From: Agrypnia vestita
Lineage: Eukaryota > Arthropoda > Insecta > Trichoptera > Phryganeidae
Length of the DNA: 64,000 bases
NCBI GenBank assembly: GCA_016648135.1
Contig: JADDOH010005024.1
Coordinates: 1 to 64,000 of the forward strand
Reading direction: 5' to 3'
Numbering within the stretch: the stretch's first letter is position 1; each line of letters opens with the position of its first letter. A model generated the notes under the pieces. The model saw only the letters and a program-made list of their open reading frames with translations. It had not been told where the DNA came from and did no database searches. Made by a program: the position numbers and the translations under genes. This document shows, piece after piece, positions 7,352 through 56,791 of the stretch.

Positions 7352-7677
7352 TGGAAATAATTTTAACTTAAAATTATTCTGATACTCTCGAAACTAGTAT
7401 TTAGTAATATGAATCAAGTAGAAAATATTTTAAAAAATACAAAAAAGTCAAGTAGGGATAAGGTTTTTTTTTCTATTCATTTAATGATAATGAACAATCT
7501 CTAGAATGATTACGCCTAATCCCAATAATAATAATTTCCTTTTCTGTCTGTCCATAACTTCCTGTAACGTCCGTTACTTCTCTTATAAAATATTTTTTTT
7601 TATAAATAAATAAAGACTTATACTTTAGGAACCGACATGAAAAAGTATGTCATTTTTGAGGAGTTATAGCTGGTCCA

Positions 7678-8266
7678 TCTATACCAATATATAAAGAGGT
7701 AAAGTTTGTAAGTTTGGATGTAGGAGATAATCTCCAAAACTACTCATCCGATTTCAGATTTTTTTTCACTAATATTTAGAATAGATTTATCAGAGTAGAT
7801 ATAGGATATATATTAACCCGTTAAAATAAAAAGGCTTTTTGTGGTGAACTATTTTATAACTAAAGTCGACAAAAAATGGTCGAGCGATGCGTTTTTTACG
7901 AACGCTGCCTCAACGGTATTAAGAAATATTAAAATACTTTTTAAGAGAAGTTGTAGAATTTAAAAAGTTCTATAAAAAATCTGCGACAACCTGTATCTAT
8001 ATTTTAAGGTTAATACACAAATTGATAAAATATGACTAAAAGTTTTTTTAAAATAAAAATAGAGATGCGATCACGGAATACGAGTCACATCAATATTCTT
8101 ACTGTTTTCAAACTAAGCTAAACGCTTGTGCTATGGAAAAAGGACTAACTTACTGGTCTGGAGTGAGATTCGAACCCGCGACCTTAGGATCACGAGGCGA
8201 GAGTTCTAACCACAAGACCAACAAGCTACTCACTACAAGTGTTTCGTGACCGCCGCGCGCGGGCAC
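7678..8266 (+). mobile_element. Non-autonomous Helitron, family B, interrupted by a SINE
   Basis: The left end TCTATACC...AAAGAGGTAAAG matches the left end of the complete copy at 15808. The body shares GGTCGAGCGATGCGTTTTTT and AAAAAGTTCTATAAAAA with that copy. At about 8054 a reverse-oriented SINE is inserted, and after it (8233-8266) the sequence resumes with CGCGCGCGGGCACA, a degraded version of the Helitron 3' hairpin. There is no Rep/helicase coding sequence, so movement would have depended on a partner element. Confidence 0.65.
8054..8232 (-). repeat. tRNA-derived SINE, family 1, head type A, inside a Helitron
   Basis: Reverse-oriented copy with AAATAGAGATGCG-type tail junction, the TGAAAATAGGACTAACTT-like body and a head with B box GGGTTCGAATCTCACTCC on the minus strand. 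It ends at GAGTAGCTTGTTGG. It splits Helitron B. Confidence 0.8.
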
Positions 8267-13700: not shown

Positions 13701-15180
13701 AAGTTCAAATATATTCAATACTTAAATGATAAATCATTACAAAAATGATTTATCATTCAATAAAATACAGCTAAAACAATATAATACAGATAACCCAGTC
13801 ACATGTCGTTCCTGGACTCTAATGTTTGTCAATCTGATTTAGAACAAAAAAGAAAAATTTATTTTCCTTGATAATGAAATTATTATAGCTATTGTGGCAC
13901 GAAATTAATTTATTTGTTTACATATTCAAAATTGTGAATATGGATGCATCGATATGATATCGTGGCGTTATACGTAGATATGCATAGATTGATTCGATCT
14001 TACTTCCACATGATTAAATCAGTTTTAAATAAATGATAGCGGTGATATTACGTATAATAAAATTAAGAATTCCATCTTCGCGCTCCACAACAAAAAAAAT
14101 GAAATAAATCGACTTTTACTACAAATTTAAATCTGTAGTTTTTTGTAAGGAAGATTTTTTCACTTTATCTTTTTGTAAATATATTCAAAACATCAAATAC
14201 TTATTATTAATCAAAAAAAATATAATTGGATTAGTTACAATGTTAAACGGAAATAAAATTATTTAAAAGCCGTCGTACTCCGGGTTTACATAGTTTCTAC
14301 TTATCTATCATTCTAGTGCCTACTAAATAATTAAAAAATATTTTTTAATTCTTAGCCTAGAAATTATACTTCCACTTTATTTCTTTTTCTTTTTCTTCTT
14401 CTCTTTCAATAATCGTATTATGTATAATAAAAAGATAGACCACATTTTGCGATATATGTTTGTATGAAACCTTTTTCTTACAAGAGCGTTTTTAGTATTT
14501 TTTAAAAAATTTCCTACATATTTACGGTTTTCTCTGTAAAATATAAATGATAATCAATCTAAAGTTGAGGTTACTGTTATTTTATACGGATTTTGATTAA
14601 CTGATGTATTTTTACATTTCTTTTTAACTTGAGTAATTTAATAACTACTTAAATCAATAAAAAAAGAATCATTTAATTCCCATAAATCCTACATATACAT
14701 AGTTGTTTCTAAAAGCCGTGCATTCTTTAAAATCTATTTTTAATACCAATATTGATGACGTAACTTTAAAAACATAAAAATAAAATATCACTATATATGC
14801 GATGCCGATGAGAAGAAAAATAAACTCCGATAAAAACAACCTTTCTCCTCCTTTCTTTTTTCCAGCTACATATTTATTTTCCCCCTTTTCCGTCAGCCTG
14901 AAAAAGAGTTGTGATTTCTCCGATATTATTCCCGGAATATAAAACATGTTCAAGTGTGCTCTAGAATTGTACAAACTGATCTTTGTTCTCAGGTGTATCG
15001 GAGCATCCCAGAAAGTGTATTGAAAGACCGTTTGATGGGTAGTTTTAATTTCCCAACCCCACAATTTTAAACATCCCCTACATCACAGCCTCCGTATTCA
15101 GGAATCTTTTAAATAAAAGGAAGTTTACCGTTCGTATATTTAAATGTATGCGAGATATCTAACCCCCCATCAATATATAT
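13701..15180. other. AT-rich stretch without recognised genes
   Basis: A 131-codon minus-strand frame at 14669-15064 has no recognisable domain and biased composition. I do not call it a gene. Confidence 0.4.
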
Positions 15181-15230
15181 ATATATATCATCATATATAT
15201 ATATTATATATATATATAAGTATATATAAT
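15170..15230. repeat. (TA)n microsatellite at the left flank of a Helitron
   Basis: Interrupted TA repeats. A similar (TA)n tract precedes the second copy of the same Helitron at 27875-27910, which suggests that the tract is part of the element or its preferred target. Confidence 0.7.
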
Positions 15231-15715
15231 ATAAAGAAACCCGTGTTTCCCTATCCGCCAAGTTTTCTTCACAACCAGATACTACCACCCCCTGGTGGTT
15301 ATGGTGGTGGATAGCCCTTAGTGTCCCATTTAAAATGTGCGAGTTTGGTGGGGGTGGCTGAGCGTAGGTGGGAGTGGATGACGAAAATATTCTTTCTAGC
15401 ACATTGTTTTGTTATGGGAAGGCCGCAAATGATTCAGATTGTTTCAAAATAGGCGCGACGACTGTGTCGGTGAGTCTAGAAGGTTCCGGAAAAACCTGCT
15501 CTAGAAAGTTCTGGAAGGAGAAGGTTCTAGAAAATTCCCGAAAGTTCTAAACTGAGTGGCGGAATGTGTCGATGAGTCTAGAAGGTTCCTGTACATTCAA
15601 TAAATTTCTTGAAAGTTCTGGAAGGAGCGTGTTCTAGAAGGTTCGCGAAAGTTCTATGACGATCCAAACAGTGTACTGAAAATCTACGCGTGCGAAGCCG
15701 CGCGGGCACAGCTAG
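15231..15715 (+). mobile_element. Non-autonomous Helitron, family A, carrying heat-shock-element arrays (copy 1)
   Basis: The right end is typical of Helitrons: a GC hairpin (CGTGCG-AAGC-CGCGCG) followed by a short spacer and terminal CTAG at 15712-15715, with T as the next base. The whole unit recurs at 27911-28401. There is no Rep/helicase or other coding frame, so it would be mobilised in trans. Between 15478 and 15655 it is filled with alternating GAA and TTC triplets at exact 5-base spacing, the recognition pattern of heat shock factor. The left boundary is uncertain because it runs into a (TA)n tract. Confidence 0.75.
15478..15655. promoter_or_regulatory. Array of about 23 heat-shock-factor pentamers
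   Basis: Perfectly phased GAAnnTTC runs are visible at 15479-15491 (3 units), 15504-15516 (3 units), 15520-15547 (6 units: GAA/TTC at 15520, 15525, 15530, 15535, 15540, 15545), 15581-15588 (2 units), 15606-15623 (4 units) and 15632-15654 (5 units). Three alternating units already form a canonical heat shock element bound by an HSF trimer. HSF binding and heat inducibility in this genome are inferred. Confidence 0.7.
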
Positions 15716-15807
15716 TATTTTGTAAACTACACAGGAAGGGCGTGCACTCTAGAAAATCAAAAACTCTCTGCATTGCGAAAATTTCTGCGAAATATCAATT
15801 TGATATA

Positions 15808-16781
15808 TCTATATGAATATAGATATAAAGAGGTAAAGTTAGTAAGTTTGGACGTAGGAGGTAATCTCCGAAACTACACATCCGATTTCGAAAATTCTTT
15901 CATCAGTATTGAAAATGGACCTTCAGGGGGGACATAAGCTATATATTGTCTAGTAAAATTAAAAAAGATTTTCGTGGTGTACTATTTTAAAACTAAAGTC
16001 GACGAAAAAATGGTCGAGCGATGCGTTTTTTACGAACTCTGCGCGTTGGCTGCAAATGCATATTTCGGCGTTTTTTTTACGAAAATTTGGGTTTTTATTA
16101 TTCATTTATACCAGAATGTATACCCTAGACTGCAATTCTTTTAGAGAAATGACTTAGATAGAACTTTTTTTATTATATAAAAGTAATAAACTTAAATAAT
16201 GAACATGATTTACACTAATTAATAAAATATAAGCATTAATCGACAGGCCGCGGCCAAAAGATCGTTTTTAGTGTCCTAGGCGGCGCTAAGTTTTAATGAA
16301 TATTTATATGTACGCATAATATGTTTTTTATACGTATAAAGTACACTTCATTATCTAGAATCCGTACTAAGAGAAATAAGAAATATTCAATATTAATAAA
16401 GTTATAATATTTTAAATTTTAAAACGCTTTTTATTTATATAAAGAGATGATTTTAAACAGTATATTCTATTTATTCCCGTATTTTGAAGCTTTACTCAAA
16501 TAATAAAAGTTAGTTTTTTTTAATAAAAACACCTTAATGAATATTTAAAAATAAAAATTCCAAAGTATGAAATGTGTCAATAAATGACATAATTATAAAA
16601 CAGAATGCCGTCGGCAGCGGCGCCATAATTACTTTCTATAGAGAATTTGTAGAACTCAAAAAGTTCTGTAAAAAGTCCACGACGACGTACATCTATATGT
16701 TGAGGTTTATACACAAATCGACAAAATATGATTAAAAGTCACTAAAAATCTTCGCGTGCGAAGCCGCGCGGGCAGAGATAG
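15808..16781 (+). mobile_element. Non-autonomous Helitron, family B, full length
   Basis: It starts TCTATATG and continues AAAGAGGTAAAGTTAGTAAG, as in the 7.7-kb copy. It ends with the hairpin GCGTGCGAAGCCGCGCGGGC plus AGAGATAG (16778-16781), a one-base variant of the usual CTAG. The 3' end is almost identical to that of family A, so both probably used the same transposase. No coding capacity is present. It contains GGTCGAGCGATGCGTTTTTT. Confidence 0.7.
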
Positions 16782-16784
16782 TTA

Positions 16785-22598: not shown

Positions 22599-23230
22599 AT
22601 TAATACCTAATATACTAACTTAAGACGAGAAACTTCAGACCCGCGTTCTACACAAACAACACCATTAAGAAATACATTTTCAATAATAAAACTAAAACAG
22701 AACATCTAGATAATAGTGGGGTTTATAAAATTAACTGTGGGAACTGCCAATCATGCTATATAGGACAAACCGGAAGAAAAATAAAAACGCGAATAGATGA
22801 ACATTTTAAAGGGATAAAAAATTTCAATATTAATTCAGAGATGGCAGACCATGTGAGATCAGAGGGACATCACTTCAAGTATGATAACGTGGAGGTGTTG
22901 CATGTATGCAAAAAAAGGAAAGAAATTGGACATCTTGGAAAATATAGAAATTCATCTAAATAATGATAAGGCCTTAAACATACAAACAACACTTATTAAA
23001 TCCCCCCTTCTTACCATACTAGCCCCTCCCAGCAACCACTTTCACTTTCCGCCTGCCCCTCCCCCACTCCCGACAACTCCCGCCCCTATGTAGTAGATAA
23101 AATGCCTTCTAGTCTTAAGTTAGTATATTACTGAAGATGATGCAGTAAGCATCGAAAACGTTTTAATTAATTAATTTAATTAAACTGTCATTGTGTGAAG
23201 TAAACAACTTTGTGTTCTATTCATAGTTAT
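22599..23230 (+). pseudogene. Penelope-like element 3' part with GIY-YIG endonuclease domain
   Basis: The frame beginning at 22619 reads through TRNFRPAFYTNN and NSGVYKINCGNC to YIGQTGRKIKTRIDEH. GVY and YIG are the paired motifs of the GIY-YIG nuclease fold, with the conserved Arg and Glu-His that follow. That layout is typical of the C-terminal endonuclease of Penelope-like retroelements. After VLHVC an A-run frameshift moves the natural continuation (KKLDILENIEIHLNN) to another frame, so the original frame ends early at TAA 22961-22963. The reverse transcriptase part is missing. The 3' terminus carries CTGAAGA...GAAAA at 23131-23160 and then the same sequence as the right arm of the palindrome at 9425-9605. 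Confidence 0.8.
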
Positions 23231-26349: not shown

Positions 26350-27459
26350 ACAGTAACATCCTTTTAATGGAAATAAACTAACGCAGTAGTTATAATGCTT
26401 CTGCAGAATGTAGGTCAACATTTCTTTCAAATACCTATTGATTTTAGGATATCTCGATGAAATACAATACATATTGTAAGGAGGCTAAAAAGAATCACGC
26501 ACTCATGTCAAGTGACAGTTGTTTGAAATGATTACAATACTACCGAAGATTCCAGAACGGCCTAGCATAATCTACGGCTTACGAGAAACATCTCCAAAAG
26601 TCTAGAAACTAAATAATAAAAATAATTACTTCTTATGTGCGCAGTAAAATAATAGTTTAAAAATAATACACATTTGCGCAAATATATTTGTATAAAATTA
26701 ATTATCCAGATGAGTTTATAATCTTCACACATTATAGAAAAATTAGAGGAAACGTTGGTGGGAACTGTTAATGGAAATAAATTCAGTCACAAAATTCTAA
26801 AGAATTCAATAAAACAATTTATTTCATTTGTTACTCCCTTTCTTTTAACTCGTAGCATCTGTTTGCTTGATTGACGAAAAAACTTTGGATCGATTTTTAA
26901 CCCTTTTCCCGTGATCAAACCAAGCTGAAACTTTGCAAGCAGACTCGTGGTGACGATCAAAAAGATCTATCAAATTTTGGTTAAAAAAATGATAATTATA
27001 GTATAATTTTTAGAAATATTTAATGTTTTTTTCATGCAATTAAGTAAGTGGTATGTAGAGACTGCGACGCATCTGGTAGACACGAAACCTGATAAAATAA
27101 GAAAGCGAGTAAAATAAAAACTTGGTTTTTATAGGTTAGTTTTTTTACATTTGGAATACACTTTTTACGTAACTTAATATTAATATGTTTTAATATTTAA
27201 TACAGTGCAATTATTTTTAATTTATTATTACGGTAAATGTATAAAATGATAAAAATAAACAGAGTTATAAAATTTTCTCCCCTTGCACGGGAGTTTCCCA
27301 GTAGAAGAGGCAAATACAATAAACAAATCAAAGAAAATTCGGCATCTACTCTGTGGTTAAATTAATAAATTTAAAATAATTAGTTAAATTTAATTTTAAA
27401 TAAAATAGTTTGTAATTAATAAATGCATAGTTTTTACGCACGTTATTTTTTTATTCAAC
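26350..27459. other. AT-rich stretch without recognised genes
   Basis: Nothing supportable was found on either strand. Confidence 0.35.
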
Positions 27460-27548: not shown

Positions 27549-27910
27549 ATCAAACTCGTTATATATATGATAAATACCTCGTTATATGTATGATATATAA
27601 CTAAGAATCTTTAAACGAAGATAAACTATGGATGTAAATGAGCACCATGTACTACCACCAATAACTTGTCCTGATCTGATGAGATTGTGGATAACCATGG
27701 TGATAATAATCACTCGGTTCAGTATATTTGATTTTTTGTAACCACGTATTTTTATTTTTTTATTGTTTACTTATCATTTATACCACTTACCAAAGTATAA
27801 AATTGATACTTCACTTGTCGATGAGAGATTTTGATTCTCTCGAATCTACATAGTAGTAAAATAATAAAATCAAAATATATATATAGACTATATATATATA
27901 TGATAATATA

Positions 27911-28401
27911 TATAAAGGAAACCCGTGTTTCCCTACCCGCCAAGTTTTCTCCACAGCCAGCCACAAACACCCACCGGTGGTTATGGTGGTGGATAGCCCT
28001 TGGTGTCACATCGAAAATATGCGAGTTTGGTAGGGGTAGCTGTACGTGGGTGGGAGTGGGTGACGAAAATGTGCTTTCTAGCACATTGTTTCATTATGGG
28101 AAGGCCGCAAATGCTTCAGAATGTTTCAAAATAGGCGCGCCAACTGTGTCGGTGAGTCTATAAGGTTCCGGAAAAAACCTGCTCTAGAAAGTTCTGGAAG
28201 CAGAAGATTCTAGAAAATTCACGATTAAGGTTCTTAACTGAGTGGCGAAATGTGTCGGTGTGTCTAGAAGGTTGCTGTATATTCGATAAATTTCTTGAAA
28301 GTTCTGGAAGGAGAATATTCTAGAAGGTTCGCGAAAGTTCTATGACGATCCAAACAGTGTACTAAAAATCTACGCGTGCGAAGCCGCGCGGGCACAGCTA
28401 G
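27911..28401 (+). mobile_element. Non-autonomous Helitron, family A, with heat-shock-element arrays (copy 2)
   Basis: This copy is collinear with 15231-15715. It has GGAAACCCGTGTTTCCCTA near the left, GGTGGTTATGGTGGTGGATA in the middle and the GC hairpin plus CTAG at 28398-28401 on the right. It is preceded by a (TA)n tract like the other copy. Substitutions scattered along it show that the two copies diverged after insertion. No protein is encoded; minus- and plus-strand open frames of about 105 codons are incidental. Confidence 0.75.
28166..28340. promoter_or_regulatory. Heat-shock-factor pentamer array, second copy
   Basis: Phased runs occur at 28166-28173 (2 units), 28187-28199 (3), 28203-28220 (4), 28292-28309 (4) and 28313-28340 (6 units: 28313, 28318, 28323, 28328, 28333, 28338). 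The six-unit run here lies at the right-hand array, where the other copy has five. In the middle array this copy has four units where the other has six. Confidence 0.7.
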
Positions 28402-50059: not shown

Positions 50060-51343
50060 TTAGGTCCTTACATATGAAATTGGCGTTTAGTATGGAAGGA
50101 ACATAAAGCCGATTTTTTTTTATTATAATATATTTATTTAATCAAAGTATATACCATTGCTATCTATGCACTTTTGCCATCTCATACGTAGTTCATCGAT
50201 CCCTTTACTAAAAAACCATTCGGACGGGAATCAATAAAATCTTTGAAGGCGGTTTGGACTGCCCCATCGGAGTTGAATTTTTTCCTTTGCAAGAAGTTAT
50301 CCAAATTTCGAAAAAAATGGTAATCTGTTGGGGCAAGGTCCGGAGAGTACGGTGGATGTCTTAGACATTCCAATTGAAGCTCCTCTAATTTGGTAGCCGT
50401 CTGTTGTGCAGTGTGTGGTCTAGCGTTATCATGAAGCAGCAGTGGCCTAGAGCGATTAACCAGCCTCGGTTGTTTAGCAGCTAGCTTTTCCATCATGGTT
50501 TGCAGTTGCTGACAATAGACATCTGCCGTAATCGCCTGGCCAGATTTAAGAAAGCTGTAGTGAACGACACCAACACTAGTCCACCAAACGCTCACAAGTA
50601 ACTTTTTTGGAGTCAATTTTCGCTTGGGGCATGGTTTGGCTGGTTCGGCAGGGTTCAGCCATTGCGATGAGCGCTTCCGATTATCGTACAGGATCCACTT
50701 TTCATCACAGGTAATGATTCGATTTAAAATCCCTTCATTATTGTGCCGGTTGAGTAATGCAACGCAGCAGTCAACGCGCGTTTGTTGATTTGCTTCACTC
50801 AATTCGTGAGGTACCCACCTTTCAAGCTTTTTCACCTTACCAATTTGCTTCAAGTGGATTAAAACAGTTTTATCACTAACACCGCAGCCTGCAGCTAACT
50901 CGGATGTGGTTTGCGATGGATCCGCTTCCACAATAGCCTTCAATTCTTCATTATCAACTTGGTCTCCGGCCGTCCACGGGGCTTGTTCTGCAGGTCGAAA
51001 TTTCCAGAACGAAAACGTTGGAACCAAAAACGCACTGTGTTTTCTTTTGCGGCACCGTCGCCATACACATCATTAATCCTTCGAGCCGTTTCTGCAGCAC
51101 TGGTGCCACGGTGGAACTCGTACTCGTAAATAACGCGATATTTCAAGTTTTTCATTTTGTAAACTGAGTGACGCAAAGAAAAAAACAATTGAGGAAAAAA
51201 CAAATGAATTATAATTTTCAAAACACAAATACATGAGTAAATAGCTGTATAAATTTGGATTTGGAATTCCTAACCAAAGAGAAGATATTTGAGATCAAAT
51301 TTGCCAGTACGGCAAAACGCCAATTTCATATGTAAGGACCTAA
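50060..51343 (-). mobile_element. mariner transposon, copy 1
   Basis: A 1284-bp element bounded by terminal inverted repeats of about 28 bp (TTAGGTCCTTACATATGAAA inward from both ends) and by the TA target duplication at 50058-50059 and 51344-51345. The length and ends are those of a full-length mariner. Its transposase reads on the minus strand. It sits inside a P1 palindrome. Confidence 0.9.
50138..51155 (-). pseudogene. mariner transposase, two 1-bp deletions
   Basis: Cut-and-paste transposase of the cecropia/Hsmar1-like mariner group. It shows N-terminal helix-turn-helix DNA-binding segments, the linker WVPHEL, and a catalytic DD34D triad in TCDEKW, HDNARPHTA and SPDLAPTDYH. It starts at ATG 51155-51153 and its natural stop would be at 50140-50138. 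Against copy 2 it lacks one A after RGRPETK (near 50959), which throws the N-terminal domain out of frame. It also lacks one T near 50214-50219, which scrambles the last residues (FLVKGSMNYV instead of the family's C-terminus). The catalytic core is otherwise open and still has Gln where copy 2 has a stop. It cannot make active enzyme. It differs from copy 2 by only two residues (V/A and A/T) over the part both share, so the insertions are recent. Confidence 0.9.
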
Positions 51344-54746: not shown

Positions 54747-56033
54747 TTAGGTCTTTACATATGAAATTGGCGTTTTGCCATACTGGCAAATTTGATCTCA
54801 AATATCTTCTCTTTGGTTAGGAATTCCAAATCCAAATTTATACAGCTATTTACTCATGTATTTGTGTTTTGAAAATTATAATTCATTTGTTTTTTTCCTC
54901 AATTATTTTTTTCTTTGCGTCACTCAGTTTACAAAATGAAAAACTTGAAATATCGGGTTATTTACGAGTACGAGTTCCACCGTGGCACCAGTGCTGCAGA
55001 AACGGCTCGAAGGATTAATGATGTGTATGGCGACGGTGCCGCAAAAGAAAACACAGTGCGTTTTTGGTTCCAACGTTTTCGTTCTGGAAATTTCGACCTG
55101 CAGAACAAGCCCCGTGGACGGCCGGAGACCAAAGTTGATAATGAAGAATTGAAGGCTATTGTGGAAGCGGATCCATCGCAAACCACATCCGAGTTAGCTG
55201 CAGGCTGCGGTGTTAGTGATAAAACTGTTTTAATCCACTTGAAGCAAATTGGTAAGGTGAAAAAGCTTGAAAGGTGGGTACCTCACGAATTGAGTGAAGC
55301 AAATCAACAAACGCGCGTTGACTGCTGCGTTGCATTACTCAACCGGCACAATAATGAAGGGATTTTAAATCGAATCATTACCTGTGATGAAAAGTGGATC
55401 CTGTACGATAATCGGAAGCGCTCATCGCAATGGCTGAACCCTGCCGAACCAGCCAAACCATGCCCCAAGCGAAAATTGACTCCAAAAAAGTTACTTGTGA
55501 GCGTTTGGTGGACTAGTGCTGGTGTCGTTCACTACAGCTTTCTTAAATCTGGCCAGACGATTACGGCAGATGTCTATTGTCAGCAACTGCAAACCATGAT
55601 GGAAAAGCTAGCTGCTAAACAACCGAGGCTGGTTAATCGCTCTAGGCCACTGCTGCTTCATGATAACGCTAGACCACACACTGCACAACAGACGGCTACC
55701 AAATTAGAGGAGCTTCAATTGGAATGTCTAAGACATCCACCGTACTCTCCGGACCTTGCCCCAACAGATTACCATTTTTTTCGAAATTTGGATAACTTCT
55801 TGTAAAGGAAAAAATTCAACTCCGATGGGGCAGTCCAAACCGCCTTCAAAGATTTTATTGATTCCCGTCCGAATGGTTTTTTTAGTAAAGGGATCGATGA
55901 ACTACCTATGAGATGGCAAAAGTGCATAGATAGCAATGGTACATACTTTGATTAAATAAATATATTATAATAAAAAAAAATCGGCTTTATGTTCCTCCCA
56001 TACTAAACGCCAATTTCATATGTAAGGACCTAA
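54747..56033 (+). mobile_element. mariner transposon, copy 2
   Basis: A 1287-bp element with terminal inverted repeats (left TTAGGTCTTTACATATGAAA, right complement TTAGGTCCTTACATATGAAA) and TA at 54745-54746 and 56034-56035. It is oriented opposite to copy 1, so the two 5' ends face each other across 3.4 kb. Confidence 0.9.
54936..55955 (+). pseudogene. mariner transposase with a single premature stop
   Basis: A DD34D transposase that would catalyse cut-and-paste transposition at TA sites. The start is ATG 54936 (MKNLKYRVIY); the natural length is 339 residues with a stop at 55953-55955. The segments in order are paired helix-turn-helix regions in roughly residues 1-105, WVPHEL at 114-119, and catalytic Asp151 (TCDEKW), Asp243 (HDNARPH) and Asp278 (SPDLAPTDYH). 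The last two are separated by 34 residues. Codon 290 is TAA (55803-55805) where copy 1 has CAA, a single C-to-T change, and the frame continues unbroken afterwards. All three catalytic residues lie before the stop, but about 50 C-terminal residues are lost. The frame is otherwise clean, which points to recent insertion. Confidence 0.9.
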
Positions 56034-56513: not shown

Positions 56514-56714
56514 ATACAGGTTTATTTGGAAAACATTAAAAATCGCAGGACTATATTTCTGCCTTGATTCTTAGACGAAAATGTTCAAGCTATCATGATC
56601 TATAATATCAATAGTTATGGAAATATGCGACATCAAAATTTGCATTTTTTTTCAATATTTCTGACTCATTTTTTGTAAAACGTTGGAATATCATTACAGT
56701 AACATATATCATAT
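56514..56714. mobile_element. P1-type element, one arm only
   Basis: TACAGGTTTATTTGGAAAAC, ATTTCTGCCTTGATTCTTAG, AATAGTTATGGAAATATGCG and TTTCTGACTCATTTTTTG follow the arm order of the full copies. The second arm is missing and a Helitron 3' end abuts it. Confidence 0.65.
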
Positions 56715-56791
56715 GTTAAGGGTAATATACAAATTGACAAAAACAAAAGTTACTAAAAATCTACGCGTACGAAGCCGCGTGGTTAAGCTAA
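56715..56791 (+). mobile_element. Helitron family B, 3' end only
   Basis: AAATCTACGCGTACGAAGCC followed by GCGTGG and terminal CTAA. Only the last 77 bases remain. Confidence 0.6.

What the first reader, a model, noticed from the sequence alone, without database searches (positions are those of the whole stretch)
15478..15655. Helitron that carries a dense heat-shock-element array
About 23 GAA/TTC pentamers sit in 178 bp, including runs of six (15520-15547) and five (15632-15654) with exact 5-base phasing. Three units suffice for an HSF trimer. The array is inside a small element with a Helitron-type hairpin and CTAG end. Helitrons carrying heat shock elements have been reported in Caenorhabditis; I do not know of this family in an insect. 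If functional, each insertion could place nearby genes under heat control.
Basis: partly seen in the sequence, partly recalled or inferred. Interest (0 to 1): 0.88.

Follow-up and report, generated by a model that had tools for sequence, protein, structure and literature searches.

The report
Mobile element carrying heat-shock switch sites
A short jumping DNA element, seen in five places in this animal (probably insect) genome, carries a dense cluster of what look like docking sites for the master heat-shock protein switch, so insertions could bring neighbouring DNA under heat control, something so far reported for one genus of worms.

Summary
The array is real and belongs to a repeated Helitron. 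All 5 full copies have A|TCAA...CTAG|T ends and 8-11 canonical trimeric heat shock elements (HSEs); the 2-base alternating spacing gives 47 trimers, spacers 0, 1 and 3-6 give none. In the sample 27 of 40 HSEs lie in the three copies (0.6% of bases); of 315 one-kb bins, only bins of family copies hold more than one. Between the array's two halves, spacers differ at 8 of 20 sites and cores at 4 of 39 (p 0.014); between copies core against rest of array is not significant. Two related 3' ends lack the array. Best reading: a non-autonomous Helitron family that spreads heat-inducible HSF-binding arrays. HSF binding, heat response, host species, genome-wide copy number and an autonomous partner are not shown; the genome search did not complete. 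A 2019 survey found Helitron-HSE enrichment only in Caenorhabditis, so this is a new, possibly independent, instance.

The parts
15170..15715 (+). Helitron copy 1, full element, 546 bp, A|TCAA...CTAG|T
15170..15236 (+). AT-rich 5' terminal tract of copy 1, variable in length between copies
   Evidence: alignment of five copies
15460..15549 (+). first half of the array (direct repeat, 77% identical to the second half)
15562..15656 (+). second half of the array
15479..15491 (+). phased HSE run, 3 units
15504..15516 (+). phased HSE run, 3 units
15520..15547 (+). phased HSE run, 6 units
15606..15623 (+). phased HSE run, 4 units
15632..15654 (+). phased HSE run, 5 units
15689..15704 (+). short 3' stem-loop before CTAG (6 pairs incl. 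one G-T, 4-base loop)
   Evidence: z -0.01, not more stable than shuffles
15712..15715 (+). 3' terminal CTAG of copy 1, followed by T
27870..28401 (+). Helitron copy 2, full element, 532 bp, same ends
28187..28199 (+). copy 2 phased HSE run, 3 units
28203..28220 (+). copy 2 phased HSE run, 4 units
28292..28309 (+). copy 2 phased HSE run, 4 units
28313..28340 (+). copy 2 phased HSE run, 6 units
15795..16781 (+). adjacent relative: candidate 5' A|TCAA at 15795, shared 3' tail at 16741-16782, no HSE in the 400 bp before its end (its last bases read GATAG, not CTAG)
56751..56782 (+). partial related 3' tail, no CTAG end and no HSE in the 400 bp before it

Best explanation
A non-autonomous Helitron family of about 480-550 bp that carries, just inside its 3' end, a duplicated array of binding sites for heat shock factor (HSF). 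Shown: element ends, A|T target, at least five full copies, 8-11 canonical HSEs in each, and no comparable HSE cluster elsewhere in the DNA examined. Inferred: on heat, HSF trimers bind the runs of 3-6 phased units and activate transcription of the element and/or DNA next to it, so an insertion can act as a portable heat-responsive enhancer. The array probably entered one Helitron lineage and was doubled there before the family spread; whether it first served the promoter of an autonomous partner's Rep/helicase, as in Caenorhabditis, is open.
For: Phased runs absent from 5000 shuffles. 5 of 5 full copies with A|TCAA...CTAG|T and 11, 9, 8, 8, 11 canonical HSEs. Trimers 47 at spacer 2, 0 at spacers 0, 1, 3-6 and 0 in same-direction order. 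27 of 40 sampled HSEs in 1496 of 251,000 bases. Only family bins exceed one HSE among 315 bins. Halves: cores 4 of 39, spacers 8 of 20 sites changed, p 0.014. Two related 3' tails without array. In C. elegans Helitron HSEs gain HSF-1 and Pol II on heat and Helitron1_CE induction depends on HSF-1 (PMC6927752 sections; PMC6765114 passages).
Against: No binding or expression data. Between copies cores are not significantly better kept than the rest of the array (11 of 342 against 31 of 597, p 0.19) or spacers (p 0.62). Copies are 7-12% apart and may be silenced. No gene was identified beside either window copy. HSEs outside the family also exceed a Markov expectation (13 outside the copies; 3.8 expected for the whole sample), so part of the excess has other sources. 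Copy sample is small (5).
Confidence: 0.65

Rival explanations
1. Passive repeat: the array is a GAA/TTC-rich repeat picked up and doubled inside a Helitron; HSF binding, if any, has no consequence because copies are silenced or far from genes.
For: Internal direct duplication. No significant core-against-rest difference between copies. No gene identified next to the copies.
Against: Spacing is exclusively that of HSF sites. Spacers differ between halves more than cores. 5 of 5 full copies keep runs of at least 5 or 6 units.
Confidence: 0.22
2. The array serves transposition itself: subterminal repeats that bind the Helitron Rep/helicase, or single-strand structure near the 3' end.
For: It lies about 60 bp from the 3' end and is made of inverted units.
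Against: As single-stranded DNA it folds no better than shuffles (z -0.52). Two relatives with the same 3' tail lack it; one of these lacks an intact CTAG end and both are old.
Confidence: 0.08
3. The array binds another factor, for instance a STAT-type protein (site TTCnnnGAA, recalled).
For: The half-sites resemble those of some other factors (recalled).
Against: TTCnnnGAA occurs once in five copies against 36 TTCnnGAA and 40 GAAnnTTC.
Confidence: 0.05

Closest known systems
Caenorhabditis Helitrons with Helitron-acquired HSEs (Helitron1_CE, Helitron2_CE, HelitronY1_CE, HelitronY1A_CE, HelitronY4_CE, Helitron7_CB; PMC6927752, PMC6765114)
   Same: Helitrons with dense HSE clusters, overlapping tandem HSEs, non-autonomous copies, a large share of the HSEs found.
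   Different: Another host (not identified, probably insect); about 0.5-kb element with the array next to the 3' end; no autonomous partner, HSF binding or expression data. The sequences were not compared here, so homology or convergence is undecided.
Insect non-autonomous Helitrons such as the Csup_Hel1 family (PMC6544945, passages only)
   Same: 5' TC, 3' CTRR, short exemplars without coding capacity.
   Different: 'Heat shock' has 0 occurrences in that paper's main text; sequences not compared.
ONSEN/COPIA78 retrotransposons of Brassicaceae (PMC5059998, abstract start in a search listing)
   Same: A transposon with heat-responsive elements in its own control region.
   Different: LTR retrotransposon of plants; its activation by heat is shown.

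Membership tests
Helitron (canonical, non-autonomous) | 5' TC and 3' CTRR ends, no terminal inverted repeats | tested here: met
   TC...CTAG in 5 of 5 full copies
Helitron (canonical, non-autonomous) | Insertion between A and T without target duplication | tested here: met
   A before and T after in 5 of 5; no empty site was available
Helitron (canonical, non-autonomous) | 3' hairpin shortly before CTRR | tested here: inconclusive
   A stem is predicted at the expected place but z -0.01 against shuffles
Helitron (canonical, non-autonomous) | Autonomous partner with Rep/helicase sharing the ends | not tested
   The genome search did not complete; none of the ten window frames given to Pfam matched a Helitron domain
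Helitron with HSE array (Caenorhabditis type) | Clusters of canonical HSEs (more than 10 per kb in the published tally) | tested here: met
   11 HSEs in two one-kb bins, 9, 8 and 5+3 in the others; so 2 of 5 copies pass the published threshold as binned
Helitron with HSE array (Caenorhabditis type) | HSEs enriched in Helitrons over the genome | tested here: met
   27 of 40 in 0.6% of a 251-kb sample; the whole genome was not scanned
Helitron with HSE array (Caenorhabditis type) | HSF binding and heat induction of element or neighbours | not testable with these tools
   needs ChIP or CUT&RUN and RNA-seq
Helitron with HSE array (Caenorhabditis type) | Common descent with the Caenorhabditis elements | not tested
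   no Caenorhabditis Helitron sequence was at hand

The most novel reading that the evidence does not exclude
In an insect lineage a Helitron independently acquired an HSE array and now supplies most strong HSF sites of the genome, so that very many insertions form a dispersed heat-switched enhancer network: convergent with Caenorhabditis, and evidence that the Helitron-HSF alliance recurs across phyla.
Probability: 0.35. Interest if true: 0.85.

Novelty: new member of a known kind. Interest (0 to 1): 0.72.

Why it matters
The published survey concluded that the Helitron-HSE link may be restricted to Caenorhabditis (PMC6927752). A second instance in what is probably an insect would make it a recurrent way for a transposon to tie itself to the stress response, and would make the question of whether transposons rewire arthropod heat responses directly testable with heat-shock RNA-seq and HSF CUT&RUN on insertion-polymorphic genes.

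Tried and rejected
The genome-wide copy search (genome search, own genome) did not complete, so copy number and the autonomous partner rest on a 251-kb sample or stay open. Exact-pattern scans for tail, head and array in viral contigs and for the tail in genome contigs gave 0 loci each. A looser five-unit HSE pattern gave 8 viral loci and an array pattern 2 loci of one Nodularia MAG; compared with both window copies they gave only short matches, none over 40 aligned bases, mostly at the HSE motif, so they are not relatives. A conceptual translation of copy 2 found no protein.

Host placement: the mariner at 54939-55805 is 85% identical to a Bombyx mori transposase (unnamed entries score higher), but mariners move horizontally; a GIY-YIG frame found nothing; L032 carries a P450 closest in sequence to CYP3A4 among solved structures, CYP6-like by recall; Rfam gave only tRNAs in the window and in 14 of the 26 sampled stretches; NCBIfam and phage records gave nothing.

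Single-strand structure was rejected as the reason for the array. A two-copy core test (4 of 72 core, 11 of 124 other sites differ) and the five-copy test show no significant core constraint within the array between copies. Of the five p-values three are below 0.05; they are not corrected for the number of tests.

Literature: nine searches combining Helitron or transposable element with heat shock element, HSE, HSF, insect, Hymenoptera, Lepidoptera and Drosophila terms; no arthropod Helitron with HSEs stood out among the listed titles and abstract starts. One search listed 15 of 352 papers and 20 of 21; the library holds only open-licence PMC papers. Rows dropped before a count: none of the five full copies; the two partial tails were counted apart; columns with a gap in the majority were left out.

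Full report
Observation. The array at 15478-15655 is as described: 25 GAA/TTC triplets and phased runs of 3, 3, 6, 4 and 5 units, outside anything in 5000 dinucleotide shuffles. The densest 178-bp stretch of the window starts at 15475; among positions taken every 20 bases the only other stretch of similar density is a second copy at about 28161. Of the 12 phased runs of three or more units in the window, 9 are in the two copies, one is at 26545 and two are in mariner copies.

The element. BLAST within the window finds a second full copy at 90% identity and two partial 3' tails. Both copies read A|TCAA at the left and CTAG|T at the right, so the element is 15170-15715 and copy 2 is 27870-28401.

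More copies. Of the 25, 20 are contig starts and 5 are interior stretches of contigs whose starts were also sampled. Three further full copies turned up: L015:7162-7668 (-), L024:8631-9143 (+) and L036:2260-2735 (-). All five full copies have A|TCAA...CTAG|T, pairwise identity 88-93%, and 11, 9, 8, 8 and 11 canonical HSEs. In L036 the 5' body is replaced by an inverted piece, yet both ends and the array are kept. Three copies in 251 kb is about one per 84 kb; in a genome of several hundred Mb that would be thousands, an extrapolation from three copies with the genome size unknown here.

Specificity. In the five copies the alternating trimer exists 47 times at spacer 2 and never at spacers 0, 1, 3, 4, 5 or 6, nor in same-direction order. 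Pairs at spacer 2 number 40 (GAA>TTC) and 36 (TTC>GAA); TTCnnnGAA occurs once. NGAANNTTCNNGAAN is the motif of the published scan (PMC6927752 methods).

Enrichment. In the sample 27 of 40 canonical HSEs are inside the three copies, 1496 of 251,000 bases; the binomial value of 1e-50 treats sites as independent, which clustered sites are not. In the window it is 20 of 23, but the window was picked for this feature. Of 315 one-kb bins, only bins of family copies hold more than one HSE, and two hold 11. Against the strongest reading: the 13 HSEs outside the copies also exceed the Markov expectation of 3.8 for the whole sample; some of them repeat the mariner sequence. With the same motif the highest published share inside Helitrons is 46.2%, in C. 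elegans (PMC6927752 section 9); 27 of 40 is of that order or higher, from a small sample.

Evolution. The array is two halves of about 95 bp, 77% identical. Between majority halves, core triplets differ at 4 of 39 sites, spacers at 8 of 20 and other sites at 7 of 29 (core against spacer p 0.014, core against spacer plus other p 0.035). Between copies, departures from the majority are 11 of 342 (core), 7 of 170 (spacer), 24 of 427 (other array), 75 of 1139 (5' body) and 9 of 305 (3' tail); core against rest of array p 0.19, against spacer p 0.62, against body p 0.018. This fits a site pattern kept while the source elements evolved and neutral decay after insertion, but it is weak evidence. Two relatives with the same 3' tail have no HSE in the 400 bp before it, which fits gain of the array in one lineage.

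Mechanism, inferred. HSF trimers bind the runs; C. elegans HSF-1 DNA-binding domains bind tetrameric and pentameric sites with added cooperativity (PMC9148306 passages). In C. elegans, Helitron arrays gain HSF-1 and Pol II on heat, nearby genes are up-regulated, and Helitron1_CE induction depends on HSF-1 (PMC6927752 abstract, sections 5, 6, 8, 9, 12 and part of 16; PMC6765114 passages). Here the array ends about 60 bp from the 3' edge, so it could act on DNA beyond. No gene beside either window copy was identified.

Comparison. The 2019 survey of UCSC metazoans with annotated Helitrons found HSE enrichment only in Caenorhabditis and no HSE clusters elsewhere. Its Results print the motif as NGAANNTCCNNGGAN and its Methods as NGAANNTTCNNGAAN; the first has 0 exact matches in this window, the second 23. 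I take the Methods form as the one used, so the survey stands within the species and repeat annotations it covered.

Host. Insect is likely: a mariner 85% identical to one of Bombyx mori, a P450 closest to CYP3A4 among solved structures and CYP6-like by recall, GC 29-37% in 4-kb windows. None of this is proof.

Verdict. A real, multi-copy, HSE-bearing non-autonomous Helitron family; the heat-switch function rests on anatomy and on the Caenorhabditis analogy and is not shown.

Noticed in passing
window 50182-51269 and 54882-55805; L022, L024: Mariner transposase copies (Pfam Transposase_1), one 85% identical to a Bombyx mori transposase; further copies in L022 and L024. A 3-unit HSE-like run sits in the coding sequence of the two window copies.
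   Followed up: partly
window 15795-16781, 7677-8043, 56702-56782: A related, array-free Helitron-like family lies directly downstream of copy 1 and has pieces elsewhere in the window.
   Followed up: partly
L036:2260-2735: Copy with its 5' body replaced by an inverted piece that forms a long palindrome, while both ends and the array are kept.
   Followed up: no
window 22619-22963; L016; L017: A GIY-YIG frame and, in L016 and L017, reverse-transcriptase-like frames that look Penelope-like by eye.
   Followed up: no
PMC6927752, Results against Methods: The HSE motif of the multi-species scan is printed as NGAANNTCCNNGGAN in Results and NGAANNTTCNNGAAN in Methods, probably a misprint.
   Followed up: yes
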